A DNA stretch of 52,050 bases, taken from positions 1 through 52,050 of the forward strand of contig JAJXZF010000115.1 in NCBI GenBank assembly GCA_021780225.1, in the 5' to 3' direction. The stretch comes from Deltaproteobacteria bacterium. GTDB taxonomy: Bacteria; Desulfobacterota; Binatia; Binatales; Binataceae. The notes beneath the pieces were generated by a model. The model saw only the letters and a program-made list of their open reading frames with translations. It had not been told where the DNA came from and did no database searches. This document shows positions 4,167-50,491 of this stretch, piece by piece. How positions within the stretch are numbered: position 1 is the first letter of the stretch; each line of letters starts with the position of its first letter. A program made the translations under genes and the position numbers.

Positions 4167-4190
4167 CCGCGAAAAAGCCTGATCAAACTG

Positions 4191-6611: not shown

Positions 6612-6732
6612 ACCGGCCGCATGAACGCGGCGTCTGAATCGTTACGACTCGATCGGCGCTATGCTAGGTTGCGCTCAAGCGGTCGTTTGCTTGATTGGCG
6701 GCGCGCTTGATCAACGGTGACGGCAGGTCGCA

Positions 6733-7740
6733 ATGCCCCAAATCAAAGAGACGATTTTCGCGCCGCCGCTTGAAGGCGGCGAATGGTTGCAGCACGGGCC
6801 GGTCGATCTGGAACGGGTGCGCGGCAAAGCGGTCATCCTGGTCGATTTCTGGGACTATAGCTGCGTGAATTGTCTGCGGACGCTTCCTTATGTCGCGGAG
6901 TGGCATCGCCGCTACGCGGATTCCGGATTGATTATCGCCGGGGTCCACGCGCCGGAATTCAGCTTCGCCCGCGACCGCCCGCTGGTGGCCGCGGCGATCG
7001 GCGAACTGAAACTTGAATATCCGGTGGTGCTTGACAGCGACTACCGAATCTGGCGCGCCTACTCGAATCGCTACTGGCCCGCCAAATATCTAATCGACGC
7101 CCAGGGCAGGCTGCGCTATTACCATTTCGGCGAAGGAATGTACGCCGAGATCGAGACGCGAATTCAGGCTTTGCTCAATGAGCTTAATCCCGCCGCGGCC
7201 TTTCCGCCGCCGATGGCTCCGGTGCGGCCGAGCGACCATCCGGGCGCGCTCTGTTATCGGGTGACGCCGGAGCTTTATCTTGGTTACGAACGCGGTCAAT
7301 TCGGCAATCCCGCGGGCGTGGTTCAGGAATGCGAGGCGGATTATGTCGATCCGGGCCGCCACGCCGAGGGCGCGATCTACCTCGGAGGGCGCTGGACGGT
7401 CGGCCGCGAGGGGGCAAGCGCCGCGGCTTCAGGCGCCACGATTTCGTTACGTTACACCGCGCGGGACGTGAATCTGGTGATGAGTCCATCGGCCAACGGC
7501 GCGGCGCGCGTCGCAATCGAACTGACCGGAAACCATCGCCCCGGCGCCGACGTGAAAGTTGACGGCGGCCGAATGGCCGTCAATGTCGATCGCGCACGGA
7601 TGTACGAGCTGGCGACCAACGATTCCGTCGAGGCGGGCGGCATGACGCTGCGCATGCCGGATGCGGGCGCGACCGCCTATGCCTTCACTTTCATTTCTTG
7701 TGTGGCCGCAGGGGAGGGCGCTGATGAAAAAGCCAGATGA
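6733..7740 (+). CDS. thioredoxin-like redoxin with DipZ-type C-terminal domain
   Basis: 335 aa. The N-terminal thioredoxin fold carries the redox motif WDYSCVNCLR, with Cys44 and Cys47, the variant typical of redoxin/DipZ (CcdA-Trx) proteins. The C-terminal half (about 180-325) is beta-rich and resembles the carbohydrate-binding-like domain that follows thioredoxin in DipZ. Unlike full DipZ there is no CcdA membrane domain, and no signal peptide is visible, so it is predicted to be cytoplasmic. It may act as a disulfide reductase or peroxiredoxin-like protein. The sirtuin gene begins inside its last 17 bases, so the two are coupled. Confidence 0.8.
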   Translation: MPQIKETIFAPPLEGGEWLQHGPVDLERVRGKAVILVDFWDYSCVNCLRTLPYVAEWHRRYADSGLIIAGVHAPEFSFARDRPLVAAAIGELKLEYPVVLDSDYRIWRAYSNRYWPAKYLIDAQGRLRYYHFGEGMYAEIETRIQALLNELNPAAAFPPPMAPVRPSDHPGALCYRVTPELYLGYERGQFGNPAGVVQECEADYVDPGRHAEGAIYLGGRWTVGREGASAAASGATISLRYTARDVNLVMSPSANGAARVAIELTGNHRPGADVKVDGGRMAVNVDRARMYELATNDSVEAGGMTLRMPDAGATAYAFTFISCVAAGEGADEKAR

Positions 7741-35149: not shown

Positions 35150-36850
35150 ATGGCCCAATCAAACGTCACTGACGGGTTTCACCTCGTCATCGACGCGCTC
35201 AAACTCAACGGCTTGGAGACCATTTTCGGCGTCGCCGGAATTCCAATCACGGATTTGGCGCGCCTGGCGCAGGCGAAGGGTCTGCGCTATCTCGGATTTC
35301 GCCACGAGCAGTCCGCGGGACACGCCGCGGCGATCGCCGGTTTCCTGACCAAAAAGCCCGGAATTTGCCTCACCGTATCCGCGCCCGGCTTTTTGAACGG
35401 GATGGCCGCGCTCGCCAACGCGACGGTCAACGGCTTTCCGATGATCCAGCTCAGCGGCTCGAGCGACCGTGCGATCGTCGATCTCCAGCAGGGCGATTAC
35501 GAGGAGCTCGATCAGATGAACGCCGCCAGGCCGTATGCGAAAGCGGCGTACCGGGTAAATCGTCCACAGGATATCGGCGTTGGAGTCGCCCGCGCGATCC
35601 ATGCCGCCCTCTCCGGCAGGCCGGGCGGAGTATATCTCGACCTGCCCGCCGACGTCCTGAGCGCCGCGCTCGATACCGCGGCCGCGGAGCAATCGCTGGT
35701 GAAGGCGATCGATCCGGCGCCACGGCACATCCCTTCGCCGGAATCGATCCAGCGCGCTGTCGAAGTGCTGGCCAGGGCCGAGCGCCCGCTGGTCATTCTG
35801 GGCAAGGGCGCGGCGTACGCTCAGGCCGACGAATCCGTGCGGGCATGGATCGAGACCACGCGGATTCCTTACTTGCCGATGTCGATGGCGAAGGGATTGT
35901 TGCCCGACAATCATCCCCAATCGGCGGCGGCCGCCCGCTCCTTTGTCCTCAGTCAGGCTGACGTGGTGATGCTGATTGGCGCGCGGCTGAATTGGCTGCT
36001 GGCTCACGGCAAGGGGCCGCAGTGGCCGCCGGCGGCCAAATTCGTGCAAATCGATATCGCGCCCACGGAAATCGACAGTAATCGGCCGATCGCCGCGCCG
36101 ATTGTCGGCGATATCGGCTCGGCGCTGTCCTGCCTTCTCGAAGCGAATAAGCCGGGACGGATTCAGCCCAGCGCCGCGTGGCTCGATGCGGTTGCGGCGC
36201 GCAAGCGCCAGAATGCCGAACGGATGCGGGCGAATCTCGACGCCAACGCGACGGCGATGAATTTTTATGGCGCGCTGGGCGTGGTTCGCGAAGCGATCGC
36301 TCGACGGCCCGATGTTTACGTCGTCAATGAAGGCGCCAACACGCTCGATTTTGGCCGCAACATCGTCGATATGTCTTTGCCGCGCAAACGCCTCGACAGC
36401 GGCACTTGGGGCGTGATGGGTATCGGCATGGGGTATGCCATCGGCGCTGCGGCCGTCAGCGGCAAACCGGTGCTCGCGATCGAGGGCGACAGCGCGTTCG
36501 GATTCAGCGGCATGGAAATCGAGACGATCTGCCGCTACCGGCTGCCAATTGTGGTCGCGGTCTTCAATAACGGCGGCATCTACCGCGGCGACGACGTCAA
36601 CCGCGGCGGGGGATCCGATCCCGCGCCGACGGTGCTGATGAGAAGCGCGCGCTACGACAGGCTGATCGAAGCCTTCGGCGGCGCCGGCTATCACGTGACG
36701 GCTCCCGCGGATTTCAAAACCGCGCTCGCCGAGGCTTTGGCGTCAGGCCAGCCCGCGCTAATCAATTGCGCGATCGATCCGGCGGCGGGAACCGAGAGCG
36801 GCCATATCCAAAACCTCAACCCGAAAAGCTCCCTGTCTCGATCCAGGTAA
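35150..36850 (+). CDS. oxc: oxalyl-CoA decarboxylase
   Basis: 566 aa ThDP-dependent enzyme. The N-terminal Pyr domain has GLETIFGVAGIP and GFRHEQSAGHAAAIAGF with its catalytic Glu, and the C-terminal PP domain has RKRLDSGTWGVMGIGMGYAIG and EGDSAFGFSGMEIETICRY (from about residue 443), then NNGGIYRG. These blocks match oxalyl-CoA decarboxylase closely. The reaction is oxalyl-CoA to formyl-CoA plus CO2. Together with the upstream ligase it forms a route for oxalate use; formyl-CoA transferase is not in the window. GGGAGAG precedes the ATG, and the MITE-like element ends 15 bases before it. Confidence 0.95.
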   Translation: MAQSNVTDGFHLVIDALKLNGLETIFGVAGIPITDLARLAQAKGLRYLGFRHEQSAGHAAAIAGFLTKKPGICLTVSAPGFLNGMAALANATVNGFPMIQLSGSSDRAIVDLQQGDYEELDQMNAARPYAKAAYRVNRPQDIGVGVARAIHAALSGRPGGVYLDLPADVLSAALDTAAAEQSLVKAIDPAPRHIPSPESIQRAVEVLARAERPLVILGKGAAYAQADESVRAWIETTRIPYLPMSMAKGLLPDNHPQSAAAARSFVLSQADVVMLIGARLNWLLAHGKGPQWPPAAKFVQIDIAPTEIDSNRPIAAPIVGDIGSALSCLLEANKPGRIQPSAAWLDAVAARKRQNAERMRANLDANATAMNFYGALGVVREAIARRPDVYVVNEGANTLDFGRNIVDMSLPRKRLDSGTWGVMGIGMGYAIGAAAVSGKPVLAIEGDSAFGFSGMEIETICRYRLPIVVAVFNNGGIYRGDDVNRGGGSDPAPTVLMRSARYDRLIEAFGGAGYHVTAPADFKTALAEALASGQPALINCAIDPAAGTESGHIQNLNPKSSLSRSR

Positions 36851-36869
36851 ATCGAAAGAGAGCGCAATC

Positions 36870-37129
36870 CTAACGCCGCCGCGCGCGGAAATTAAAGTCA
36901 TTGATTTGGCCGGCGTACCGGCCACGGCCGGCGCCGCCGCGCCCTTATCGGCAGCGACGAGGTTTATCAGCTTGCCGTGGCCATCATAGCTGGATTTGGT
37001 CGTGGCGCCGCTGGCGTCGGCGATCTGCGTTATCCAGCCGGGCTTGTCGTAAGTCAGATTTACAGCGACCCAAGACTCGCTCCGCTTGTACGATAGGCAT
37101 CCGCCTTTAACAGCAATCATTCCGTACAA
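36870..37129 (-). pseudogene. YD-repeat-like fragment or small unknown gene in the oxc-HEAT gap
   Basis: The 388 bases between oxc and the HEAT gene hold one open frame on the minus strand with coding-like composition. It begins at a TTG (37129) or ATG (37120). It contains WITQIADASGATTKSSYDGHGKL, which resembles a YD (RHS-type) repeat, followed by an Ala/Lys-rich stretch. The open frame runs on into the end of oxc as antisense (stop at 36758), so its true end is unclear. It is more likely a remnant or a chance-extended fragment than a functional gene. Nothing else is seen in this gap. Confidence 0.3.
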
Positions 37130-37238
37130 TAGCCGGAAGCGGGGAACTTTAATATGCTATAACGCAAGATGACGACAGCTCACGTTCCAAAGCGCGGCCG
37201 CTCACAGACTGGAGAAGGTGGCGCAGGAGTAATTTGAC

Positions 37239-40200
37239 ATGAGCCGAGATTCTTATTCGTATTCGGTGGTTTTAGCCATCCTGCTTCTCGGCATGATTTT
37301 CGCGCCCGCGATTTCGGCACAAAGCGCAGCGGCGAGCGGTGCGAACGCCTCACCCGAGGTATCTTCGCTGATCGCGCAATTGGGTAGTCCCGAACTACAG
37401 TCGCGACGCGATGCGGCGCGGCGGCTCGCGGCTATACAGCCGATGCCCGCGGAGGTAATTCGGGCGCTTGCGAATTTTCTTCAGACGGCTGAAAAGAATG
37501 ACGCAAGCCAGCGCTATGCGATCCTCGGCCTCGCCAAGGCCGGCGCTCCCGCGCTTCCCGCGGCGACTCGCCTGCTCGGCAGCCCTAACGCCGTGACCTG
37601 CGAAGCAGCCGAAGAAATTCTGGATCGAATGGCGCTGACTGTGCCCGCAGCGTCGCCAATTCTGATCGCGCGTTTCAAAAAATCGCCCTTTGGCCCGTGG
37701 CCAGTCGCCTACGAACTGGCGCACGCAGGGCCGCCGGTGGTTCCCCTGTTGGTTCGCGCGCTGAAAGACCCGGACCCGAGCACGCGGATGGGCGCGGCCG
37801 CGACGCTGGCCGAGATGGCGAACTTTGCGCGGCTCTATAAAGATGCTTCGGCGCAGGCGCGCCGCCAGAGCGGTGTCGTATTGGCAACCTCTCGCGACCT
37901 CGCGCCCGCGGCTCCCGAACTGGCCGATGCGCTCAACGATCGCGACCCGGAAGTGCGCAATTGGGCCGCGGTTGCACTGGCATACGCGAATCCAGCCGAC
38001 GCCAGATCGATTCCGATCCTGGTTCAGCTTCTCGACGATAACAACTTCATTATTCGCGACGAGGCTACTTCAGCACTCGAGAACATGGGTAGTGCGGCGA
38101 GGTCTGCCGCGCCTGCTCTCGAGCGAGCCTTGGCGAGTAATCCAAACGTCGATGTACGGGTTGGGGCCGCGCGCGCGCTGCTTCCAGTCGCCGGCCGAGA
38201 CGCCTGCGGCGCGCTCGCTCACGCGGTTGGGACGGACACGGCCCCCAACGTGCGCGTATGGGCCGCACGCTCGCTCGTCGCAATTCATCCGCGATGCGCG
38301 CGGATGCTGCCGGTGTTGCTCGAAACTCTTGGCAATTCGGCATATTCGGCGACCGGCGAACTCGCCGGAATCGGGGCTCCTGCGGTTCCAGGGCTGCTCG
38401 CGGCTCTTAAGAGCGGAAACCTCTATGTTCGCCAGGATAGCGTCACGGCGCTGGCGCGAATGAAGCCGATGCCGCCGGAGGCGAAGCGCGCTCTCATGGT
38501 TGCGCTCAATGACAAAAGCCTCGACGTCAGATCAGCCGCCGCGAGTGCGTTGCTGGACGCGGGCGGGGCGGCTCAGCGCGCAGCCCAAGCAGAGACGGCG
38601 CGCGAGGAGAAGATTTACGCTCAGGAATCGAAGCCTGATATGCGGACGTATACCGGACGGGAGATTGCCGCGCCGGTTCCCGCCGACCCCAATCATGTAT
38701 ATCCGCTTTCACTGAGCTACCTGGTTCCAGTTGTCGCGACTGAGGAACCCATCCGGCGGGCGCAGTTTCTGATTGCGCTCTATTCCGGTCGCGACCGCCC
38801 GGAGCGGTTGGTTTTCTGGCGGAAAGTCGGTCCCGACGCTTACCGCAAGGCCGTAGTCGTCCAGTCTCAGGATCCAGATTTTCGCGAAGAGTATTACGAG
38901 GTCCCGGACATTTTCACGGCCAAGGTTCGTATCCGGGGCCAAGAAGCGCAGCGGGAGCGGACGCAACTGTTCGTCGATGTGCCAGTGGACGGATGGCGCA
39001 GCCACACGGACCAGTTGTTCGCCGTCGTTGGCGGCAAGCTTCATTCGGTGCGAATCCAGTCCGCTCAGAAAATATATCAACCCAAACTCACGCCGCGCGA
39101 AATTATCTGGTACCCGGCCTACAACAGTTTTTCCGACGACGAATTAAAATTCTCGATGTCGATTTGGAACGACGATGACCCTATGTGTTGCCCCAACGCG
39201 GGTGACGTGACCGGAACCTACATGATCATCGAGACGCCCGCTGCTCCCGGCGCCCGGCCGACATGGATGATGCTCGTCGCGAGCGCGAAGCGGGAAATGC
39301 GCTCCCCGCAGCCGCGGTTGCCGAAAAAACGTCGCGAGGACAAACTGGCAATCTGGACCCGGGAAGCCGGCCACGGTTCGCCGCCGACCCTCTCCGAACT
39401 GCTGGCGGCGTTGAAAAGCGCCGATCTGCAAGATCGAAACGCCGCTGCGATCATGCTCATGCGGATGAAGCCTTTGCCGGCGGTTGCGATTCCGGCTTTG
39501 GTCGAGGCGCTGAGTACTCCAGATCCACAAAACAGGTTTCAGTTCTCGGTATTCGATGCGCTGGGCGACGGCGGCGCGGCGGCGGTTCCCTTTCTAGCTC
39601 AACTGGCGCATAGCGATGACCCGATGCGGCAACGGGTGGCGTTCCAGGCGTTAGGCAGGATCGGATTACATGAGCCTGCGGCGTGGCCGATTCTGATTAA
39701 CGGATTGAAGTCCGCCGGCGCCGATGCGGCGCAATCGGCGCTGGCGAACATCGGCGCTCCGATCGTGCCCTTGCTTCGCAAATCTCTCGAAGATCCCGAC
39801 CCCAGAATCCGCGCTGGCGCCGCAGCGGCTCTCGTAAGCATGGCGAGCGTCACCCGGATGATTGGAAAATTGCCGCCGCTTTCTCTGCCGCCGACTCTCG
39901 CGTTCGCCGCTCTGTCGGTTCTGGAGACGGCGAAACCTGATCTAACGGAGGCTTTGCACGATCCCAACTCGAACGTGCGTTCCCAGGCGGCTGTCGCACT
40001 CGCTTCGATCGATCCAGCCGACACGCGGACGCTCCCTGTTCTTGTGGCGTTAATAGGTTCCAGCGACCCTGCGCTCCGCATAACCGCCTTGAGAACCCTG
40101 CAACTTATGGGGAGCGCCGCGAAAGAGGCTATTCCACCGGTCGAGCGTGCACTGCAAAGCGATCCCGACCCAGGAACTCGCGGTCAAGCGGCGCGTACCC

Positions 40201-41444
40201 TCGCGGAGATCGCAGGAACCCGCGCTTGCCCGACGTTAGCTCGCGCGGCTGCGAATGATAAAAGCGCGGCCGTGCGCGGAGGGATGATGGCGGCTATGGC
40301 GCAGGAATCGCCCGCTTGCGATCATGCTCTGCCCGATCTGATTGCGGCTCTCGGCCGGAATCAAGTCGCCGACCGCACGCTAACATGCTATTCGCTGGCG
40401 AGGTTGGGAAACGCCGCGGTTCCCCGGCTGGCCGCTGCGCTGAAAAGCCCGGACCTGCATGTGCGGGAAGACGCGGTACGCGCGCTCGGGCAGATGAATC
40501 CGCTTACGCCTGAAGCGGCGGATGCTCTTTTGATCGCGCTAAATGACAAGAGTATCGGCGTCAGATCGATGGCCGCAGAGGCGTTACAGAACGCACAGGG
40601 CGAGCCGAAACATGCAGGCGCCGTCGAACTCAAACGTGAGCGGCGGCTTCTTGCCCGGCAATCGAAGCCAGATGCTCGCCGATATCGTAAGGAAGAGATA
40701 ATCGCGCCAGCGTCCTTCGGAGCCGGTCGCGCTAATCCGATAACTCTCGCTTGTCTCCTCCCTTCCTCCCGAGATGGCGGTTCTGCTGACAACGCGCCAT
40801 TCCTCGCCTCAGTCTATCGTTTAGCGGACGGCGCCGAGCGTGTCGCATTCTGGCGCAGGACCGGCGACGACCAGTATCAGTCGCTGAAGCTCGTCGGTTC
40901 GATGGGTCCGGGTCTCGTCGTTTGGCGCGTCGGATTGCCAATTTTTTTCGTCGTGAAAGTCGAGTCGTCGTGGAGCGAATGGAGTTCCTTCGTCGACGTG
41001 CCCGGCTTCAACGGCGAGGGACGGCGCGACCGGGTTTTCGTTTTCGGCGGCGACCATGTGAATCCCGTGGAAATCGAATCGCCGGAGAAGTGGTATCAAG
41101 GCAAACTCGGCAAGAATGAAATCATCCGCGGCCCGGTCGCGAACTCATTCGCTAATGGCGAGCTGAAATTTGCATTCTCAATCTGGAAAGCTGGCGATCC
41201 GCCATGCTGTCCGACGGCGGGGCGGGTCGTAGGGACGTACAAGGTCGAGATTGAGCCGCCAATGCTGGCCATCAGCGGCGGACTCGGATTGATGTCGGCT
41301 TCCGGCGCCTACAGAACCGTCAGGGGCGTTTATCCGCTCCGGCCAACCGAGCCAGCCTGGAAACTGGTTGTGGCCGCCGCCGAACGAAAGGCTATCGGAT
41401 CTCTTTCGGTCGTCCCCCCGCATTCGATCTCCCGCAGTTTTTGA
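37239..41444 (+). CDS. secreted HEAT-repeat protein with internal tandem duplication
   Basis: 1401 aa with AGGAGTAATTTGAC before the ATG. A signal peptide (about 10-27, ILLLGMIF...AISA) sends it out of the cytoplasm. The rest is two homologous halves. Each has a long array of HEAT repeats (about 40-445 and 715-1120) followed by a beta-rich domain (about 470-680 and 1150-1340). The halves align at the HEAT/beta junction (SKPDMRTYTGREIAAP against SKPDARRYRKEEIIAP) and near the end of the beta domain (DDPMCCPNAGDVTGTY at 646-661 against GDPPCCPTAGRVVGTY at 1319-1334). HEAT solenoids are protein-binding scaffolds; the paired cysteines could form a disulfide or metal site. Function unknown. It appears monocistronic. 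Confidence 0.85.
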   Translation: MSRDSYSYSVVLAILLLGMIFAPAISAQSAAASGANASPEVSSLIAQLGSPELQSRRDAARRLAAIQPMPAEVIRALANFLQTAEKNDASQRYAILGLAKAGAPALPAATRLLGSPNAVTCEAAEEILDRMALTVPAASPILIARFKKSPFGPWPVAYELAHAGPPVVPLLVRALKDPDPSTRMGAAATLAEMANFARLYKDASAQARRQSGVVLATSRDLAPAAPELADALNDRDPEVRNWAAVALAYANPADARSIPILVQLLDDNNFIIRDEATSALENMGSAARSAAPALERALASNPNVDVRVGAARALLPVAGRDACGALAHAVGTDTAPNVRVWAARSLVAIHPRCARMLPVLLETLGNSAYSATGELAGIGAPAVPGLLAALKSGNLYVRQDSVTALARMKPMPPEAKRALMVALNDKSLDVRSAAASALLDAGGAAQRAAQAETAREEKIYAQESKPDMRTYTGREIAAPVPADPNHVYPLSLSYLVPVVATEEPIRRAQFLIALYSGRDRPERLVFWRKVGPDAYRKAVVVQSQDPDFREEYYEVPDIFTAKVRIRGQEAQRERTQLFVDVPVDGWRSHTDQLFAVVGGKLHSVRIQSAQKIYQPKLTPREIIWYPAYNSFSDDELKFSMSIWNDDDPMCCPNAGDVTGTYMIIETPAAPGARPTWMMLVASAKREMRSPQPRLPKKRREDKLAIWTREAGHGSPPTLSELLAALKSADLQDRNAAAIMLMRMKPLPAVAIPALVEALSTPDPQNRFQFSVFDALGDGGAAAVPFLAQLAHSDDPMRQRVAFQALGRIGLHEPAAWPILINGLKSAGADAAQSALANIGAPIVPLLRKSLEDPDPRIRAGAAAALVSMASVTRMIGKLPPLSLPPTLAFAALSVLETAKPDLTEALHDPNSNVRSQAAVALASIDPADTRTLPVLVALIGSSDPALRITALRTLQLMGSAAKEAIPPVERALQSDPDPGTRGQAARTLAEIAGTRACPTLARAAANDKSAAVRGGMMAAMAQESPACDHALPDLIAALGRNQVADRTLTCYSLARLGNAAVPRLAAALKSPDLHVREDAVRALGQMNPLTPEAADALLIALNDKSIGVRSMAAEALQNAQGEPKHAGAVELKRERRLLARQSKPDARRYRKEEIIAPASFGAGRANPITLACLLPSSRDGGSADNAPFLASVYRLADGAERVAFWRRTGDDQYQSLKLVGSMGPGLVVWRVGLPIFFVVKVESSWSEWSSFVDVPGFNGEGRRDRVFVFGGDHVNPVEIESPEKWYQGKLGKNEIIRGPVANSFANGELKFAFSIWKAGDPPCCPTAGRVVGTYKVEIEPPMLAISGGLGLMSASGAYRTVRGVYPLRPTEPAWKLVVAAAERKAIGSLSVVPPHSISRSF

Positions 41445-41501
41445 TTGATCGCATCTTCGCGCGGAAGAACTGAGAATTTCCCCCGGCTGCGCGACGCGAC
41501 G

Positions 41502-41533
41502 TGCCCCGGCCGGGAGTCGAACCCGGACTCGCC
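41502..41533 (-). pseudogene. tRNA 3'-end fragment (T arm and acceptor strand), candidate attachment site
   Basis: On the minus strand CCGGG-TTCGACT-CCCGG (41526 to 41510) forms a perfect five-pair T arm with a canonical loop. It is followed by a seven-base acceptor 3' strand CCGGGGC (41509-41503) and discriminator A (41502). No matching 5' acceptor strand GCCCCGG occurs within 150 bases on the expected side, and no CCA is encoded. This is the piece of a tRNA gene usually left at the far end of an element that integrated into the tRNA 3' end; with this orientation the element lies to the right. Confidence 0.55.
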
Positions 41534-41692
41534 CTATCAGCAAAGCACATCCAATGCCGACCAAGAAAAGCAAGTAAGATCGCGGCCTTTTGCCTTCCCG
41601 GTTGGCTTGGCGATGTGAGCGTTTACCCGGATTTGCTGCAGCGTTTGCCAAACCCCAGCCAAACCGTTTTGGCAAGTCCCGCAGGCAATGCT

Positions 41693-41709
41693 ATATATCC
41701 TTGATATAT
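41693..41709. promoter_or_regulatory. VapBC operator-like inverted repeat
   Basis: ATATAT-N5-ATATAT (41693-41698 and 41704-41709) overlaps the vapB start codon at 41708. Antitoxins of the AbrB/VapB type commonly bind such AT-rich inverted repeats at their own promoters to autoregulate. A second palindrome, GCCAAACCGTTTTGGC (41658-41673), lies 35 bases further upstream and may be another half of the control region. Confidence 0.5.
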
Positions 41710-41956
41710 GGCGAAGAAGAAGACGAGACGAGCAACCGCTAAAGTGTTCACCAGCGGTCGCAGTCAGGCGGTGCGCATCCCGAAGGAATACCGGTTCTCC
41801 TGCGATGAGGTCTCAATTGAGCGCGAGGGCGAGCGCGTGATTCTCACCCCGCGCCCCAAGTCATGGCGCGAGTACTTCGCCCGCGCATCCCGGTTCAGCG
41901 ACGACTTTCCCGATCGCATCGAGGATCGGCAGGCGCAGGAGCGTGAGGGCTTCTGA
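41708..41956 (+). CDS. vapB: VapB-type antitoxin (AbrB fold)
   Basis: 82 aa. [20 protein letters not shown] (11-30) is the swapped-hairpin AbrB DNA-binding motif of VapB antitoxins. The C-terminal acidic/basic tail ([19 protein letters not shown]) would wrap the toxin. It neutralises VapC and represses the operon. Its TGA overlaps the vapC ATG by one base (TGATG). An operator-like repeat overlaps its start. Confidence 0.93.
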
Positions 41957-42363
41957 TGCCGCGTTTGATGCTGGACACCAACATCTGTATCTACGCGATC
42001 AAGCGCAACGAACCTGAAATCGTTCGTCGCCTCGAGAGGACCCGGCCGCAGGACGTGGCTATTTCTTGCATGGTCGCCGCGGAGTTGTGGACGGGAGTGG
42101 TGAAGTCGCGCGAACGCCAGCGCAACGAACACGCTTTAAATGAGTTCCTGGCCTTTGTTGAGGTTCTCGATTGGCCTGGCGAAGCCGCCCGGATTTACGG
42201 TGAAATTCGCGCCGCGCTGGAAGCCAAGGGCCGAACGATCGGCGCGATGGACCTGCTCATCGCCGCGCACGCCATTCACGAGCGGGCGACCCTCGTAACT
42301 CGAAATGCCGACGAATTCACGAGGGTCGGGAGCCTCAAGACCGAGAGCTGGAAACCAGAGTAA
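41956..42363 (+). CDS. vapC: VapC-type PIN-domain ribonuclease toxin
   Basis: 135 aa PIN domain. LMLDTNICIYAIK supplies the first Asp (residue 7), SCMVAAELWTGV the Glu, and AMDLLIAAHAI the third acid, followed by TRNADEFTRV. VapC toxins cleave specific RNAs, often initiator or other tRNAs, when the antitoxin is degraded. The one-base overlap with vapB makes a classic pair. It is the first intact operon right of the tRNA-like fragment and may stabilise the putative island. Confidence 0.94.
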   Translation: MPRLMLDTNICIYAIKRNEPEIVRRLERTRPQDVAISCMVAAELWTGVVKSRERQRNEHALNEFLAFVEVLDWPGEAARIYGEIRAALEAKGRTIGAMDLLIAAHAIHERATLVTRNADEFTRVGSLKTESWKPE

Positions 42364-42377
42364 GAGAGCGCCAACCG

Positions 42378-42693
42378 ATGGCGCGGAGATTCTGGTCTGC
42401 TCGGTTCCAGCGAGCTGTTGGTCATCTGGCCTTAGCCTTGGATCAGGACCAGTGCATGATCGCACAGCCAATCTCGACTCGCATTGGAGGCTCACCCAAC
42501 GGTCTGGCGCGCATCCAAGTGCCTGACGACTGCTCCTTGGCGCGCCTCCACGGGATCATTCAGGCCGTGATGGGGTGGCAGGACTACCACCGCACGAGTT
42601 TACGGTTAACGCGGTCGGGCTTAGGGTGATCCTGAAGTAGACAAGGAGAATCGGCTGTCGAGGATCGTACCGTTCGTCTGCGGAACCTCGTTC
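42378..42693 (+). pseudogene. decayed pRiA4b ORF-3-like gene, at least two frameshifts
   Basis: The first frame reads ...ARIQVPDDCSLARLHGIIQAVMGWQDYH (to 42590). After a lost base it continues in another frame as HEFTVNAVG (from 42593). After a second shift it reads GDPEVDKENRLSRIV and GTSF (42625-42693). Joined, these give the N-terminal part of the plasmid pRiA4b ORF-3 / IS1096-type passenger family (VPxxxxLxxLHxxIQxxMGWxxYHLHEF). The rest of that protein, including its YDFGD motif, is missing. It is a broken remnant of a mobile-element gene, left beside the toxin-antitoxin pair. Confidence 0.65.
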
Positions 42694-42702
42694 CCGCAAT
42701 CG

Positions 42703-42789
42703 GGGACCTATCGGCTGATCGAGAACGCCGTCGAGATCGTCCGCGTGATTCATGGCGCGCGCGATGTCGAGAGTTTGTTCGAGCCGTGA
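42703..42789 (+). pseudogene. C-terminal remnant of a RelE/ParE-type toxin
   Basis: The frame GTYRLIENAVEIVRVIHGARDVESLFEP ends at a TGA (42787-42789). VEIVRVIHGARDVE is the conserved C-terminal strand and helix of RelE/ParE toxins. It follows in the same frame directly after the pRiA4b remnant, so two unrelated gene pieces were joined by deletion. There is no N-terminus and no antitoxin. The remaining bases to 42965 hold no recognisable gene. Confidence 0.55.
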
Positions 42790-42965
42790 GGCTTCGCGTG
42801 CGACAATCATTGATAAGGGTCGAGAGGGCGAAGCGGACCACCGAGTTTAGGACTTCGCGATGCGTAGTTTGGGCAAGTCGATGCTGGCAAAGCTGACGAG
42901 TCCGAGCCATCGGCAGCGAGCGCATTGACCCAACAGAAAAGAAAATACGGGGAAACTGGTAGAGG

Positions 42966-45443
42966 ATGGCCGATCAATTAAGCCTCGCACAGCAGGAAAG
43001 CGGCACAATGGACATCCCAAGGGCTTCCTGGCTGACCACAGAAGAGGCTCATGCTCGGCTTGGGCGATTCGGGCCGAATCAAATCTTCCGTCCGAGCCCT
43101 GTGCGCTTCTGGGGAATTGCGCGCGAGGAGATCACGGAGCCGATGATCCTCCTCCTGCTGACGGTGGGCGTTGTCTATAGCCTGTGGGGCGCGGCCTCCG
43201 ACGCGGCCACCATCTTCGCCGTCATCATCACCCTTGTGCTGGTGGAGGTCTACAACGAGTTCCGCGCCAAACGCGCCATCGCCGCGCTGGAGCGCATTGC
43301 GGCCCCGAAGGCGCGAGTCGTGCGGGACGGGGTGGCCGTGGACGCTGAGACGGAAGCGGTTGTGCCCGGAGACCTGTTGGTCCTTATTCCCGGCACACGC
43401 ATTCCGGCCGACGCGCGGATGAGCGAAAGCCGCAATCTTGCCTGTGATGAAGCGGCATTGACCGGTGAATCGGTTGCCGTCGAGAAGAGCGTCGACGACA
43501 TCGTCTACGCCGGCAGCGTCGCGGTCGCTGGTCAGGGCGAGGCCGTGGTGACGGCCACTGGGGCCTCCACCCGAATCGGCGCGATCGCCCTGACGCTTGA
43601 GCAGGTCCGCCGTCCCAGAACCCCATTGCAACTGGCAATGAAGGAGCTGGCCGGGAAGCTGGTCTGGGTTGCCGCGTTTTTCGCCGTTCTGATCCCGCTG
43701 ATCGGCATCCTGCAGGGCCAGAACTTCCGCCAGATGATCCTGACGGGATTGTCGCTTGCCTTTGCGACAATTCCCGAGGAGCTTCCGATCATCATTACGA
43801 TGGTGCTCGGGCTGGGCTCTTACGCGCTCTCGCGCAGCAACTTCCTTGTCAAACGCATCCACGCCGCAGAGACGCTCGGCGACGTGACGATCATCGCGAC
43901 GGACAAGACAGGGACGATCACCGAAAGCCGCATGCAGGTGGCCGGCGTTTATCCTGATGGGCATGCAGAGACCGTGCTCCGAACCGCCCTCGCCAATCTG
44001 TCCGAACACGTGATCGATCCGTTGGAACAAGCTATCGTCGAAGCGGCGCGAGCGGTGGGACTGACATTGCCCACATCAGAGATTGTGCGCGTTCGGCTGG
44101 TCGGCAACGGGCGCAAGACCAAGGCTACGCTCCGGCGCGCAGGATCAGCACTGCATCTGTTCGTGAGCGGTGCGCCGGAAGAGGTGCGCAACTTGGCGGC
44201 GAATGTGTTCGACGAGTACGACAGATTCGTCGGCCAGGAGGCGGCGAACGGCCGACGAGTCATCGCCGTTGCAACGCGCGCTCTGACGGCAGAAGAGGCC
44301 CAGATCGGTTTCACCGAGATCGAGCGCGACCTCGAGATTGTAGGACTGATTAGCTTCGAGGACCCGCCTCGCCCGGGAGTCAAGGAAACGATCGCTCGGG
44401 CCGCCGCAGCGGGTATCCGCACGCTCATGGTAACCGGCGACCATCCAGCCACAGCCGCGTCGATTGCCGGCCAGGTTGGCATCCCGGCCGACAGGGTGCT
44501 CGTTGGCAGCCAACTCGACCAGTTGTCCGATCTGGCGCTGGACGAGGCGCTTGGGCAAACATCCGTCTTCGCGCGCACATCGCCCGAGCATAAGTACCGC
44601 ATCGTCGAAGCCTTGCAGCGTGCGGGTGAAGTCGTGGCCGTCACTGGCGATGGAGTCAATGACGCGCTTGCGCTCAAGGCCGCCGACGTTGGGATCGCGA
44701 TGGGGACGAAGGGCACCGATATCGCAAAAGAAGCGGCGGAAGTGGTGCTTGCGGATGACAACTACGTTACGATCACGCGTGGCGTGTTTGAAGGGCGTAA
44801 GTTCTACGACAATCTGCGCAAGGGCGTCGGCTATTATCTCGCAGTCAAGCTCGGCCTAATTCTGATTTTTCTTCTGCCGGCGATTACCGGCCTGGCGATG
44901 CCGTTCTCGCCGATTCAGATCATCGTACTCGAGCTTTTCATGGACCTCGCCGCTTCGGCCGGGTTTGTAGCGGAACCGGCCGAGCGCGCCATTTTCGCGC
45001 GCCGCCCTCGGCGGCGTGGCGCCGGAAGGCTCCTGGATCGCGCCGCAATGACGGCAATTGTTGTGAAAGGAGGTCTCTTGTTCACGGCGGTAATGGCGGC
45101 CTACGGCTGGAGCTGGCTGCGCGGGGCGACAACCGAGGAGATTCAAACAGCCGCATTCGCGGCCTGGATGGTTGGTCATGTGATGCTCGCTTTCGTCTCG
45201 CGGTGCGAGTGCGAGTCGGTGCTCGCGATCGGTCCGTTCGGCAACTATGTCATCGACCTGTGGGCGTTGGCCGCCATCATGTTTCTTGCGGTGGCGATCC
45301 ACACTCCGGTGCTTCAGGAGAGCCTCAAGTTAGCGCCGATACCAATCGGCCGGCTCGCTGGGGTTGCCGCGATGGCATCGGCCATCACAGCTCTGGGAGG
45401 GGTTGCGAAGACACGCCGAGGAGTTGCGGCAGCAGGCAAATGA
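42966..45443 (+). CDS. P-type cation-transporting ATPase (P2-like)
   Basis: 825 aa. The phosphorylation site is DKTGT with Asp313, the A-domain loop is TGES (166-169), the M4 motif is PEELP (270-274), and TGDGVNDA forms the P-domain hinge. There are about ten membrane segments. PEELP, the Cation_ATPase_N segment (TTEEAHARLGRFGPNQI) and the lack of CPx or N-terminal metal-binding domains place it with Ca2+/Na+-type P2 ATPases rather than heavy-metal P1B pumps. The ion is not certain. A second start at ATG 43008 (AGGAAA upstream) is possible. It is followed by the HlyD gene 72 bases on, so it may belong to the same transport cluster. Confidence 0.9.
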   Translation: MADQLSLAQQESGTMDIPRASWLTTEEAHARLGRFGPNQIFRPSPVRFWGIAREEITEPMILLLLTVGVVYSLWGAASDAATIFAVIITLVLVEVYNEFRAKRAIAALERIAAPKARVVRDGVAVDAETEAVVPGDLLVLIPGTRIPADARMSESRNLACDEAALTGESVAVEKSVDDIVYAGSVAVAGQGEAVVTATGASTRIGAIALTLEQVRRPRTPLQLAMKELAGKLVWVAAFFAVLIPLIGILQGQNFRQMILTGLSLAFATIPEELPIIITMVLGLGSYALSRSNFLVKRIHAAETLGDVTIIATDKTGTITESRMQVAGVYPDGHAETVLRTALANLSEHVIDPLEQAIVEAARAVGLTLPTSEIVRVRLVGNGRKTKATLRRAGSALHLFVSGAPEEVRNLAANVFDEYDRFVGQEAANGRRVIAVATRALTAEEAQIGFTEIERDLEIVGLISFEDPPRPGVKETIARAAAAGIRTLMVTGDHPATAASIAGQVGIPADRVLVGSQLDQLSDLALDEALGQTSVFARTSPEHKYRIVEALQRAGEVVAVTGDGVNDALALKAADVGIAMGTKGTDIAKEAAEVVLADDNYVTITRGVFEGRKFYDNLRKGVGYYLAVKLGLILIFLLPAITGLAMPFSPIQIIVLELFMDLAASAGFVAEPAERAIFARRPRRRGAGRLLDRAAMTAIVVKGGLLFTAVMAAYGWSWLRGATTEEIQTAAFAAWMVGHVMLAFVSRCECESVLAIGPFGNYVIDLWALAAIMFLAVAIHTPVLQESLKLAPIPIGRLAGVAAMASAITALGGVAKTRRGVAAAGK

Positions 45444-45515: not shown

Positions 45516-46592
45516 GTGTTTAACTCGAAGTACGTTTCATTGTTGTTGAAGGTGGCCGTTGTCGCGGTCATTGCTGTAGGCGCCCTTTTGACATGGAAGT
45601 TTCTCAAGCCGAAAGGGCTGCCGGAGGGATTTGCAAGCGGCAATGGCCGGATAGAAGCGACGGAAGTCGACATTGCCACCAAGATCGCGGGGCGTATCAA
45701 AGACATCCTCGTGCATGAAGGCGATTTCGTGCATGCCGGGCAGATTCTGGCCCGGATGGACACTGATGTGCTCATGGCGCAGCGGAGGGAAGCGGAGGCA
45801 GGGCTACAGCGCGCGCTTATCGCCGTCGAGACCGTTCAGAGCAGGGTCAGGCAACGGATCGCTGAGAAGGCGGCGGCCGTGGCGGTAGTAGCGCAACGAA
45901 AAGCCGAGCTCGATGCCGCTCAGAAACGATTCGCGCGAACGGAAGAGTTGGCATCGAAAAGCGTTGTTCCGATCCAGACGCTGGATGACGATCGCGCGCG
46001 CTTTGAGGACGCGAAGGCGGCGGTCAGCGCCGCCCAAGCGCAATCCGCGGCGGCGGACGCCGCGATCAGTACCGCCAGATCCGAAATCGTTGACGCGCAA
46101 TCGCAAGTGGAGGCGGAAAAGGCCACGATCCAACGTATCCAGGCGGACATCGACGACAGCGAGCTTCGCACACCGGTGGACGGGCGCGTACAGTATCGCG
46201 TTGCCGAACCGGGCGAGGTTCTTCCGGCGGGTGGACGAGTGCTCAACCTGGTCGACCTCAGCGATGTCTATATGACTTTCTTCCTGCCAACCAGGCAGGC
46301 CGGTCGCGTGCGGCTCGGCGCGGAAGTGCGGCTGGTGCTCGATGCCGCACCCCAGTATGTCGTTCCCGCAAAGGTCTCTTTTGTCGCCGATGTCGCCCAG
46401 TTCACGCCCAAGACGGTGGAGACGGCGGAGGAGCGACAGAAGCTGATGTTCAGGGTCAAGGCGCGGATCGCGCCCGAGTTACTGCGGCAGCACCTCCACC
46501 AAGTCAAGACCGGCCTGCCCGGCATGGCCTATGTTCGGCTCAATCCGCAAGCCGAATGGCCCGCTGAGCTGCAAATTCGGCTTCCGCAGTGA
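45516..46592 (+). CDS. yhiI: HlyD/YhiI-family membrane fusion protein
   Basis: 358 aa with a GTG start at 45516. One N-terminal membrane anchor (about 9-29) is followed by a lipoyl-like half ([39 protein letters not shown]), a long coiled coil (about 85-215), and the second lipoyl half and beta-barrel ([32 protein letters not shown]). It is the periplasmic adaptor of an ABC exporter. It overlaps the rbbA-type gene by 4 bases, and a permease gene follows, the same order as yhiI-rbbA-yhhJ of enterobacteria. Confidence 0.9.
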
Positions 46593-49366
46593 TGAACCTC
46601 CCTCAACATGTCCAACCGGTGGCGCGGTTGCGCGATGTGAGCCTGCGGTATGGCCGGACGCGGGCCCTGGATGAGATCAGCCTGAATCTCCCCGCCGGTT
46701 GCATGGTCGGGGTGATCGGGCCGGACGGGGTTGGGAAATCAAGCCTGCTCGCCCTGGTCGCTGGCGCCCGTGCGGCGCAGACGGGAGAGATCGAAGTGCT
46801 GGGCGGCGACATGCGCGCCGCCGTTCATCGCCAGCGGGCCTGCCCGCGCATCGCGTACATGCCCCAAGGCTTGGGCGGAAATCTCTATGCGACGCTTTCG
46901 GTTTTCGAGAATATCGACTTCTTTGGGCGCCTTTTCGGTCAGGACCTGGCAAAACGCGAGCGCCGAATCACCGAGCTTCTGGAAAGCACGGGTCTAGCCC
47001 CCTTTGCCGCGCGCCCAGCGGGCAAACTCTCCGGCGGGATGAAACAAAAGCTGGGCCTGTGCTGCGCGTTGATCCACGACCCGGACCTTCTGATCCTCGA
47101 TGAACCTACCACCGGCGTCGATCCGCTTTCACGCCGTCAGTTCTGGGAATTGATCGCGCGAATCCGCGCTGGCCGGCCGGGGATGAGCGTTCTGGTGGCG
47201 ACCGCTTACATGGAAGAGGCGGCGCGGTTCGATTGGCTGGTGGCGATGGACGCAGGCCGGGTGCTCGCAACCGGCTCGGCGCAAGACCTGCTTGCCCGCA
47301 CCGGCACGCCTTCGCTGGAGGCCGCGTTTATCGCGCTGCTCCCCGAAGAAAAACGCAAGGGTCACCGGCCGGTGGAGATGACGCCACGCGAAGCGGCCGA
47401 GAGCGCCGAAGTCGCTATCGAAGCCCGGGACCTGACGATGCGTTTCGGAGCCTTTGTCGCCGTTGATCACGTGAGCTTCCGCATCTACCGAGGCGAAATT
47501 TTCGGCTTCCTCGGCTCAAACGGATGCGGCAAAACGACGACCATGAAGATGCTGACAGGGCTGCTCCCGCCGAGCGAGGGTCAAGCCTGGTTGTTCGGCC
47601 AGTTGGTTAATCCATACGATCTCGATACCCGCTGTCGCGTAGGCTACATGTCGCAGGGCTTTTCGCTCTATAGTGAATTGACCGTCCGGCAGAACCTCGA
47701 GCTTCACGCCCGGCTTTTTCACGTCCCGACTGAGGAAATCCAGGCGCGCATCGAGGAACTGGCGCGGCGGTTCGATCTGACCCAAGTGATCGACGCGTTT
47801 CCAGGCGCTCTGCCCCTGGGCCAGCGCCAGCGCCTCTCTCTGGCAGTGGCGATGATTCATCGCCCGGAGATGTTGATTCTCGACGAGCCAACCTCGGGAG
47901 TCGATCCGGTTGCGCGCGATGGCTTCTGGCAGATTCTGATCGAGCTTTCGCGCCGCGACCGGGTCACAATCTTCATATCCACGCATTTCATGAATGAGGC
48001 CGAGCGCTGCGACCGCATATCGCTGATGCACGCGGGCCGCGTGCTGGTCAGCGATGCTCCTGGCGCGCTGATTAAAAAGCGCGGCGCGGCAGGCCTGGAG
48101 GAGGCCTTCATCGGCTATCTCGAAGAAGCGGCGGCTGACGTGCATGAAAGCGCGGCGGCGTCGGGGGTAAAAGTCGCGACCGCCGGCGCGAGGCCCGGCG
48201 TTGGTCTTTCTGACCCGCATCAACCTGATCGTCGTCCGGCCTTCGATTTCAGGCGAATGTTCAGTTATACGCACCGTGAGGCGCTTGAATTGCGGCGCGA
48301 TCCGGTTCGCGGAACGCTGGCGCTGCTCGGCACGGTCATCCTGATGTTTGTCATGGGATACGGCATCACCATGGACGTGGAGAACCTGTCTTTCGCCGCG
48401 CTGGATCGCGATCAGACCACCACGAGCCAGAACTATATACTGAATCTCGCCGGTTCGCGCTATTTTATCGAGCATAAGCCGATCATCGACTACGCCGATC
48501 TGGATCGGCGCATGCGCTTGGGCGAGCTCAGCCTGGCGATCGAGATTCCGCCCAATTTCGGACGGGATGTGGCGCGTGGCAGGCCGGTGCAGATTGGTGC
48601 ATGGATCGATGGCTCGATGCCATCGCGCGCCGAGACGATCCGCAGTTATGTCCAGGCGATGCACGCTGAATGGCTGGCCCAGAAGGCCTCTCGGGCGCCA
48701 GGGGGGCCGGCGCCGGGCGGGCTCGTCACGATTGAGACGCGCTTCCGCTACAACCCGGACGTCAAGAGCTTGGTGGCGATGGTACCGGCGGTGATCCCGC
48801 TCCTGTTGCTCATGATCCCGGCGATGCTGGCCGCGCTCAGCGTGGTGCGGGAGAAAGAACTTGGCTCCATCGTCAATCTTTACGTTACGCCAGTGACCCG
48901 GCTGGAGTTCTTGCTTGGCAAGCAGCTTCCGTACATCGCGCTCGCGATGTTTAATTTCGCGCTGCTCGCCGTCCAAGCGGTCGTGGTGTTCCAGGTGCCG
49001 ATCAAGGGCAGTTTCCTGGCGCTGACCGCGGCGACTCTTCTCTATGTCACCGCCGCCACCGCCATGGGACTGCTGATGTCAACCTTCATGCGCAGCCAGA
49101 CTGCCGCCATCTTCGGCACGGCGATACTCACGCTCCTGCCCGCCACCCAGTTCTCCGGCATGCTCGATCCGGTCTCCTCCCTTGAGGGGGTCGGAGCGTT
49201 CATCGGCCGCATTTTTCCGACCACCTATTACCTCATCATCTCGCGCGGAATCTTCTCCAAGGCGCTGAATTTCTGGGGCCTGCGGACATCGTTCATTCCG
49301 CTGCTTCTCGCGGTGCCATTGTTGCTGTCGCTCTGCGCGACGTTGCTGAGAAAGCAGGAGGCCTGA
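46589..49366 (+). CDS. rbbA: RbbA/YhiH-type double ABC ATPase fused to ABC-2 permease
   Basis: 925 aa. The first nucleotide-binding domain has Walker [10 protein letters not shown] (44-52), LSGGMKQK and [13 protein letters not shown]. The second has [10 protein letters not shown] (near 308) and a degenerate signature [13 protein letters not shown] with [12 protein letters not shown] and [14 protein letters not shown]. The C-terminal third (about 550-925) is an ABC-2 permease with roughly six membrane segments and a large outer loop. This fusion and the second-domain wording match RbbA (YhiH), reported as ribosome-associated in E. coli but encoded in a drug-exporter-like operon. It acts here with the HlyD protein and the following permease. 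Confidence 0.92.
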
Positions 49367-49369
49367 GTC

Positions 49370-50491
49370 ATGCGCCTGGCGAACGTCATAAATCTGGGCA
49401 TCAAGGAGCTGCGCAGCCTGGCTCACGATCCGATAATGCTGATCCTGATCGCCTATTCCTTTACTCTCTCGGTCTACGCAGCGGCGACGGCCATGCCTGA
49501 GACGCTCAGCAGGACGCCGATTGCGATTGTTGACGAAGATCGATCGCCGCTTTCGACCCGGATCACCGAGGCCTTTTATCCGCCTTATTTTCTTCCGCCA
49601 GTGACGATTAACCGGGCTGAGATGGACGAGAGGATGGATGCGGGACTCGACACCTTCGCCCTGGATATCCCGCCGGATTTCCAGCGCGATGTGTTGGCGG
49701 AGCGCAACCCGGCGATCCAGCTCAACGTTGATGCGACCCGGATGAGTCAGGCGTTCACAGGGAGTGGCTACATACAGACCATCGTTACCCGCGAGGTGGA
49801 GGAGTTCGTAAAACGCTACCGTCCGTCGGCGACCCTGCCCGTGGACCTTGCCCTGAGGTCGCGCTTCAATCCGGAGCTCAACAAATCCTGGTTTGGTGCG
49901 GTTGTGCAGGTGATCAACCAGGTGACAATGCTGTCGATCGTGCTTACCGGCGCAGCCCTGATTCGCGAGCGCGAGCACGGAACGATCGAGCATCTGCTGG
50001 CGATGCCCGTCACGCCGTTCGAGATCATGACCAGCAAGATATGGTCGATGGCGCTGGTTGTGCTGGCGGCGTGCGCATTCTCGCTTGTCTTCATGGTGCA
50101 GTGGCTGTTGGCAGTCCCGATTCAGGGCTCGCTCGCGCTGTTTCTGGCGGGGGCCGCGATGAACCTTTTCGCCACTACGGCGCTGGGCATATTCCTGGGG
50201 ACAATCGCGCGTTCGATGCCGCAATTTGCCCTGCTGATGATCCTGATTATACTTCCCCTGGAGATGCTGTCGGGAGGGAGGACACCCCGGGAGAGCATGC
50301 CCGAGGTCGTGCAGTTCGTGATGCTTGGCGCGCCCACGACCCATTTCGTCATGCTCGCGCAAGGGATTCTGTATCGAGGTGCAGGTATCGGGATCGTCTG
50401 GAAACAATTCGCCGCCCTCGCGTTGATCGGCCTTGCCTTGTTTACCTACGCGCTCGCGCGCTTCCGCGGGGCCATTGGCTCGATGACATGA
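49370..50491 (+). CDS. yhhJ: ABC-2 type permease, YhhJ-like
   Basis: 373 aa. An N-terminal membrane segment, a large extracytoplasmic domain (about 45-175) and five further membrane segments make the ABC-2 layout. GTIEHLLAMPVTPFEIMTSKIWSM and LGIFLGTIARSMPQFALL are the conserved permease blocks. It starts 3 bases after the RbbA-type gene. The paired permeases (this one and the RbbA C-terminus) would form the membrane channel with the HlyD adaptor. The exported compound is unknown. Confidence 0.92.
   Translation: MRLANVINLGIKELRSLAHDPIMLILIAYSFTLSVYAAATAMPETLSRTPIAIVDEDRSPLSTRITEAFYPPYFLPPVTINRAEMDERMDAGLDTFALDIPPDFQRDVLAERNPAIQLNVDATRMSQAFTGSGYIQTIVTREVEEFVKRYRPSATLPVDLALRSRFNPELNKSWFGAVVQVINQVTMLSIVLTGAALIREREHGTIEHLLAMPVTPFEIMTSKIWSMALVVLAACAFSLVFMVQWLLAVPIQGSLALFLAGAAMNLFATTALGIFLGTIARSMPQFALLMILIILPLEMLSGGRTPRESMPEVVQFVMLGAPTTHFVMLAQGILYRGAGIGIVWKQFAALALIGLALFTYALARFRGAIGSMT

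What the first reader, a model, noticed from the sequence alone, without database searches (positions are those of the whole stretch)
37239..41444. Secreted 1401-aa protein made of two copies of a HEAT array plus a CC-motif beta domain
The two halves repeat the same order of domains with clear local identity: SKPD(M/A)R-x-Y, DPxCCPxAGxVxGTY, and a preceding FWR(K/R)xGxDxY strand. HEAT-repeat proteins with signal peptides are known in environmental bacteria, but this beta domain with paired cysteines is one I do not recognise. It could be a surface or periplasmic scaffold with a new ligand- or metal-binding domain.
Basis: partly seen in the sequence, partly recalled or inferred. Interest (0 to 1): 0.7.

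Follow-up and report, generated by a model that had tools for sequence, protein, structure and literature searches.

The report
Exported protein with duplicated HEAT-beta modules
A bacterium known only from its genome encodes a large, probably exported protein built from two copies of the same unit, a coiled helical arm ending in a rare beta head with a paired-cysteine loop; it looks more like a binding protein than an enzyme, and its ligand is unknown.

Summary
ORF 37239-41444 (+) encodes 1401 aa. Its halves align over 670 aa at 39% (E 7e-125); the beta domains alone align at 36% (E 8e-45), 139 bits against at most 24.3 in 200 shuffles. A likely export signal precedes two HEAT arrays, each followed by an about 230-aa beta head with DPxCCPxAGxVxGTY. 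The isolated heads match no Pfam, NCBIfam, PHROGs, PADLOC or PDB-sequence family at threshold. The cysteine hairpin resembles LppP/LprE lipoproteins (PF14041): sub-threshold in Pfam, hhalign 84%, nearly all of it from the CC motif. The motif is shared; membership is not shown. Three of 148 class genomes carry the head: this one, one with two modules and a collapsed first arm, and one with a single module, where CC becomes CxxC. By identities, duplication predates the split of two genera. The gene lies between a TPP-enzyme gene and a 29-bp tRNA-Arg(CCG) remnant, at an integration site. Most likely an exported binding scaffold; ligand, metal and disulfide are untested. New variant of a known kind, modest interest.

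The parts
37239..41444 (+). whole gene, 1401 aa, tandem HEAT-beta protein
37239..37319 (+). predicted signal peptide (residues 1-27, cleavage ISA|Q; no lipobox cysteine)
   Evidence: read by eye; same ...SA|Q pattern in the two relatives; no predictor run
37353..38573 (+). HEAT array 1 (about residues 39-445), cysteines 323 and 353
   Evidence: Pfam HEAT_2/HEAT; aligns to array 2, 40% over 421 aa
38631..39305 (+). beta domain 1 (about residues 465-689), nearly all beta
   Evidence: best of five models pLDDT 80.8, pTM 0.78; aligned with 4 other copies
39186..39191 (+). vicinal cysteines C650-C651 in the DPMCCPNAG loop
   Evidence: loop between strands 182-190 and 201-212 of the model
39384..40598 (+). 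HEAT array 2 (about residues 716-1120), cysteines 997 and 1027 at the same places as 323 and 353
   Evidence: Pfam; model with 23 helices before the beta domain; cysteines
40662..41393 (+). beta domain 2 (about residues 1142-1385)
   Evidence: 36% identical to beta 1; similar order of strands in the module model, lower confidence
41205..41210 (+). vicinal cysteines C1323-C1324 in the DPPCCPTAG loop
41501..41529 (-). 29-bp 3' remnant of tRNA-Arg(CCG), 100% identical to the end of the intact gene in G004: probable attachment-site scar of an element to the right
36758..37129 (-). open frame with one RHS/YD repeat (perhaps a remnant) between the TPP-enzyme gene and the HEAT-beta gene
   Evidence: PF05593 E 1.6e-4, 22.4 bits against cut-off 22

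Best explanation
An exported binding scaffold. The protein is moved across the inner membrane by a cleaved signal peptide (inferred from sequence) and stays in the periplasm or outside the cell, with no lipid anchor seen. Each of its two modules is a HEAT array (shown by Pfam; helices in the model) ending in a compact beta head (predicted by the model). A loop near the end of the head carries an adjacent cysteine pair that probably forms a disulfide in an oxidising compartment and pins the hairpin (inferred). HEAT arms and heads bind partner macromolecules without catalysis (inferred from what HEAT solenoids generally do); doubling the module gives two heads per chain (shown). The gene is optional and without conserved neighbours, and in this genome it sits at a tRNA-Arg integration site (shown), so its role is accessory rather than housekeeping (inferred).
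For: Tandem modules. HEAT. Helices, then strands, in two models. Signal sequence without lipobox cysteine, with ...SA|Q in all three proteins. A cysteine pair is kept in all 5 heads found, as CC in four and as CxxC (DCHACP) in G040. 43 invariant columns over 5 heads. Present in 3 of 41 family genomes and, one chance match dropped, 3 of 148 class genomes, own genome counted. At E<=1e-6, none of the 12 other window genes tested matches the G017 contig and one weakly (luciferase type, 24%, E 1e-8) the G040 contig. Integration site.
Against: No partner, ligand or operon points to binding. Fold matches are at background level (Foldseek none at E<=0.001; VIA-align best Z 8.0, rmsd 3.8, 143 aligned, a level the tool calls common), so function cannot be read from structure. 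The head model rests on five sequences, and its five versions range from pLDDT 64.3 to 80.8. An enzymatic role for the head is not excluded: it has invariant Asp, Trp, Lys and Arg. Export is inferred by eye.
Confidence: 0.5

Rival explanations
1. A periplasmic immunity or conflict protein: a HEAT-repeat immunity protein or effector carried by mobile elements, protecting against or acting on neighbours.
For: Sits at a tRNA-Arg integration site beside a frame with an RHS repeat; in G003 the same gap holds an integrase-like remnant (24.8 bits, cut-off 27.1) and an AbiU2 gene. HEAT-repeat immunity proteins (Imm-HEAT) are described in PMC3482391 (passages read). PADLOC HEAT-ARM_XIII hit E 3e-21 with its best stretch in HEAT array 2.
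Against: No polymorphic-toxin gene was recognised beside it, but in G017 and G040 only frames of 250 aa or more were looked at, by eye; in the window the toxin-antitoxin pair lies beyond the tRNA remnant. At 1401 aa with a duplicated module it is larger than usual immunity proteins (recalled). The RHS frame is 123 aa and points the other way. Isolated heads have no PADLOC hit.
Confidence: 0.2
2. A periplasmic metal- or redox-handling protein: the CC/CxxC loop is a metal or thiol-redox site, serving the P-type ATPase and HlyD/ABC exporters encoded downstream.
For: Cysteine pair kept as CC or CxxC in 5 of 5 heads; P-type ATPase at 42966, HlyD and ABC genes 45516-50491; in G040 HlyD-, FUSC- and TolC-like frames lie near (labels by eye).
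Against: In the window the exporters lie across the tRNA remnant. The ATPase matches Cation_ATPase_N/C, with no heavy-metal-binding domain reported at E<=0.001. G017 has der-, guaA- and gltX-like neighbours instead (by eye). No other cysteine or histidine column is invariant over the 5 heads.
Confidence: 0.12
3. The beta head is a true, extended member of the LppP/LprE lipoprotein family fused to HEAT arms (a claim on descent, which can hold together with the scaffold reading).
For: PF14041 sub-threshold at residues 629-662, E 0.027, and E 0.081 for one of 5 heads; the only plasmid tblastn hit of the CC segment is annotated LppP/LprE (E 9, 24 residues); hhalign 84%, score 41.9 against at most 22.1 in 200 column shuffles and 11.9 for the reversed profile.
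Against: 15.1 bits against a cut-off of 25; 4 of 5 isolated heads give no report. The match spans 32-34 columns of about 250 and falls to 19.7, within the range of the shuffles, when the two Cys columns are masked. No lipobox. PF14041 itself was found in 0 of 98 class genomes at E<=0.01.
Confidence: 0.15

Closest known systems
LppP/LprE lipoprotein family (Pfam PF14041)
   Same: D(P/A)xCC(P/H)(S/T)G hairpin, seen in four Streptomyces plasmid members
   Different: Heads are about 230 aa against an 87-position profile; no lipobox; score below cut-off; similarity beyond the CC motif not demonstrated
HEAT / HEAT_2 repeat proteins (PF02985, PF13646)
   Same: Arms match above cut-off, 13 HEAT_2 stretches
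   Different: Probably exported, and each array is followed by a beta domain that these profiles do not include
Imm-HEAT immunity proteins of polymorphic toxin systems (PMC3482391, passages only)
   Same: HEAT repeats; here also a mobile-element setting
   Different: Tabulated there as all-alpha; no beta head; no cognate toxin recognised here
Parts of beta-propeller proteins (sialidase 2sil, DPP4, DDB1; grouping by me)
   Same: Runs of antiparallel strands
   Different: Z at most 8.0 with rmsd 3.5-6.4 over the 50 rows shown, at the tool's background level; 4-14% identity

Membership tests
HEAT repeat (PF13646, PF02985) | Score above curated cut-off | tested here: met
   244.4 bits against 27.7 and 137.9 against 23.5
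HEAT repeat (PF13646, PF02985) | Antiparallel helix pairs stacking into a solenoid | tested here: inconclusive
   23 helices before the beta domain in the module-2 model, 31 of the first 42 ten-residue blocks with pLDDT above 80, pTM 0.54; coordinates not inspected
LppP/LprE lipoprotein (PF14041) | Score above curated cut-off (25 bits) | tested here: not met
   15.1 bits for the whole protein; isolated heads no report in 4 of 5, E 0.081 in one
LppP/LprE lipoprotein (PF14041) | CC hairpin motif of the four members aligned here | tested here: met
   in G040 changed to DCHACPSGG
LppP/LprE lipoprotein (PF14041) | Lipoprotein signal with lipobox cysteine (from the family's name) | tested here: not met
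   No cysteine before residue 121
LppP/LprE lipoprotein (PF14041) | Same fold | not tested
Imm-HEAT immunity protein | Encoded beside a cognate toxin gene | tested here: inconclusive
   No polymorphic-toxin gene recognised in the window or among frames of 250 aa or more in G017 and G040, by eye; a 123-aa RHS-repeat frame lies upstream; smaller frames in the relatives not examined
Beta-propeller | Closed ring of 4-stranded blades | tested here: inconclusive
   VIA-align Z up to 8.0 to parts of propeller proteins; closure not examined

The most novel reading that the evidence does not exclude
The beta head founds an undescribed domain family, a distant and enlarged sister of the LppP/LprE hairpin in Gram-negative bacteria, used as a disulfide-pinned receptor or adhesion head on HEAT arms that grow and shrink by recombination between repeats, and spread as accessory cargo of a tRNA-Arg hotspot in inter-bacterial or phage conflict.
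Probability: 0.15. Interest if true: 0.55.

Novelty: new variant of a known kind. Interest (0 to 1): 0.33.

Why it matters
It adds a compact beta domain that the curated protein libraries searched here do not name, with five copies in three genomes, and a natural series of one module, two modules, and two modules with a collapsed arm that suggests how such HEAT scaffolds are built. It also gives the CC hairpin of LppP/LprE lipoproteins a possible relative outside actinobacteria. Without a ligand the importance stays modest.

Tried and rejected
Head searched alone: Pfam 0 families at E<=10, NCBIfam 0 at E<=5, PDB sequences 0 at E<=10 with the profile, PADLOC 0 and PHROGs 0, plasmids and phages by tblastn no match at E<=1, viral contigs none. 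The whole protein's NCBIfam and PADLOC hits have their best stretches in HEAT repeats, except a weak TIGR04454 hit (E 0.25) over residues 9-69; its plasmid tblastn hits lie in HEAT array 2. Foldseek against PDB and BFVD: nothing at E<=0.001. VIA-align list led by parts of propeller proteins at Z at most 8.0, judged background.

G140 match (E 0.0077): 35 columns inside a helicase-like frame (label by eye), dropped as chance. CC pattern in the class: 12 sites in 10 of 145 genomes; 2 sites for the reversed control pattern. Four sites, in two genomes, are the HEAT-beta genes. The other eight (all translated) lie in frames of 17 to 818 aa that do not look related by eye. Rfam found nothing at 36700-43000 with E<=1 and ARAGORN no complete tRNA in the window. 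The tRNA-Arg site was not found beside the TPP-enzyme gene of G007. Beyond the class, the search was a 395-genome draw of the phylum, some of it from the class, and peptide patterns over 84,980 species, which would miss diverged heads.

Papers: 'HEAT repeat' with 'Binatota' 0; 'LppP LprE' 0; LprE with LppP and lipoprotein 3 listings, none read; four-term searches 2 and 1 listings, of which PMC3482391 was read in two passages only.
Full report
OBSERVATION. The reading frame 37239-41444 (+) gives 1401 aa. The halves align over 670 aa at 39% identity (E 7e-125). The beta domains alone align over 241 aa at 36% (E 8e-45), and the named motifs are at 464/1142, 526/1204 and 650/1323. Separately, the HEAT arrays give 40% over 421 aa, and beta 1 against beta 2 gives 139 bits, while the best of 200 shuffles gives 24.3. 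The repeat is therefore a whole-module duplication and not a HEAT artefact.

ANATOMY. Signal peptide of 27 residues (by eye), HEAT array, beta head, linker, HEAT array, beta head. Pfam gives HEAT_2 at 8e-74 with 13 stretches and HEAT at 7e-42. The head modelled from five aligned copies has pLDDT 80.8 and pTM 0.78 in the best of five versions (the others 64.3 to 74.2), with strands at 36-44, 56-62, 69-77, 80-88, 103-111, 118-131, 134-143, 146-152, 174-177, 182-190, 201-212 and 221-232, and helices at 19-23 and 155-162. The CC pair lies in the loop between strands 182-190 and 201-212. The module-2 model (pLDDT 75.4, pTM 0.54) has 23 helices before a head with a similar order of strands; the head is modelled less well there. 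Cysteines 323 and 353 of array 1 recur at 997 and 1027 of array 2 and at 686 and 716 in G017's second array, not in G040. A disulfide between neighbouring HEAT repeats is possible, but it is inference.

DISTRIBUTION. Own genome counted, the head was found in 3 of 96 relatives, 3 of 41 family genomes and, by profile, in 3 of 148 class genomes plus one chance match. A draw of 395 genomes from the phylum, which did not show the other two carriers, gave only the window's own. A peptide-pattern scan of the 84,980-species collection found two loci, with the contig lengths (9343 and 16005) of the two relatives: MAGs titled 'Deltaproteobacteria bacterium' FK1.bin62 and palsa_1089. A whole-protein scan found none. 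From memory such MAGs may belong to Binatota; this was not tested. Viral, phage and plasmid collections: none.

THREE ARCHITECTURES. G040 (826-aa frame): one array, one head, and the cysteine motif is DCHACP instead of DPxCCP. G017: two heads, but the first array is reduced to about two repeats. Its sequence passes from the counterpart of window residue 66 to that of residue 408 at the shared words PMPxExxRAL, 342 residues apart, as if recombination between HEAT repeats had removed the middle. The contig's title gives a coverage of 1.15, so an assembly effect is possible. Head identities: window 1 to G017 1 71%, window 2 to G017 2 51%, heads of one protein 36%, any head to G040 31-35%. By these identities (no tree was built) the duplication predates the split of the genera of G000 and G017.

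THE CYSTEINE HAIRPIN. PF14041 (LppP/LprE lipoprotein) touches residues 629-662 at E 0.027, 15.1 bits against a cut-off of 25; of the five isolated heads, one gives E 0.081. A 41-aa piece around CC, searched against 72,556 plasmids, has one match (24 residues, E 9), and it is annotated LppP/LprE. With that Streptomyces domain as query, four plasmid records match, itself included. All four domains pass PF14041 (one lies in a protein annotated alpha/beta fold hydrolase) and align in D(P/A)xCC(P/H)(S/T)G. Profile comparison gives 84% probability over 34 columns. In a rerun the score is 41.9; 200 column shuffles reach at most 22.1, the reversed profile 11.9, and masking the two Cys columns lowers it to 19.7, masking D, P, CC and P to 11.6. 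The shared motif is thus well above chance, but nearly all the signal is the motif itself. Common descent of the hairpin is plausible but unproven; membership is not met. PF14041 proper was found in 0 of 98 class genomes.

SETTING. Upstream is a TPP-enzyme gene (35150-36850), 91% identical in G003 and G004, where it also follows the AMP-binding gene; at E<=1e-150 it is in 12 of 40 family genomes, so it is not universal. In G004 it is followed after about 0.5 kb by an intact tRNA-Arg(CCG) on the opposite strand. In the window the HEAT-beta gene fills that place, and 56 bases beyond its stop begin 29 bases identical to the 3' end of that tRNA (41501-41529). Then come a MazE-type antitoxin and PIN-domain gene pair, a P-type ATPase and exporters. 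On contig 118 of this genome an intact tRNA-Arg(CCG) stands beside a phage-type integrase frame and is followed by 5.8 kb that matches the G004 flank at 86.6%; that this is the far end of the window's island is inferred, as the contigs are not joined, and contig 86 holds another such tRNA with an integrase. In G003 the same gap holds an integrase-like remnant (below the Pfam cut-off) and an AbiU2 gene before a 45-bp tRNA remnant; a large-terminase gene and, 13.5 kb on, an intact tRNA follow. In G007, no tRNA was found in the 13.5-kb stretch taken, which runs on downstream of its TPP-enzyme gene. This is an integration site used more than once. The HEAT-beta gene lies on the TPP side of the present scar, where an older element could have left it; that origin is inferred. 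G017 and G040 carry the gene elsewhere: at E<=1e-6 none of the 12 other window genes tested matches the G017 contig, and one weak hit (24%, E 1e-8, a luciferase-type gene) falls on the G040 contig.

FUNCTION. Best reading (0.5): exported accessory binding scaffold with two disulfide-pinned beta heads on HEAT arms. Shown: modules, HEAT, cysteine pair in 5 of 5 heads, sporadic presence, integration site. Predicted: the beta fold. Inferred: export, disulfide, binding. Rivals: conflict/immunity protein (0.2), metal/redox protein (0.12), true LppP/LprE member (0.15, which concerns descent and can hold together with the first). Against my reading: there is no partner, ligand, operon or fold match, and the head's invariant polar residues leave an enzyme possible.

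VERDICT. A real, tidy and rare architecture; a new variant of a known kind (HEAT scaffolds), interest 0.33.

Noticed in passing
window 41501-41529 (-), G000 contig 118:6228-6300, G003 contig 12, G004 contig 8: tRNA-Arg(CCG) integration site next to the TPP-enzyme gene: intact in G004, prophage-like with a large terminase in G003, toxin-antitoxin pair and exporters beyond a 29-bp remnant in the window.
   Followed up: partly
window 36758-37129 (-): A 123-aa frame with a single RHS/YD repeat (22.4 bits, just over the cut-off of 22) opposite and upstream of the HEAT-beta gene, perhaps a remnant.
   Followed up: partly
window 41708-41956 and 41956-42363 (+): MazE/AbrB-type antitoxin and PIN-domain gene overlapping by one base, shortly after the tRNA remnant.
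   Followed up: partly
L046 (G003) 2439-2948, 3767-4471, 5289-7004: Integrase-like remnant, AbiU2 HEPN protein and large terminase at the same site in a sister species.
   Followed up: partly
L061 (G000 contig 86): A second intact tRNA-Arg(CCG) with an integrase, a terminase-like frame and a 45-bp remnant 12.4 kb away; its 0.4-kb flank is 80% like the G004 flank that contig 118 also matches, so it may be a contaminant contig or a second site.
   Followed up: no
L007 (G017) 7442-7552: First HEAT array apparently collapsed to about two repeats by fusion at PMPxExxRAL.
   Followed up: partly
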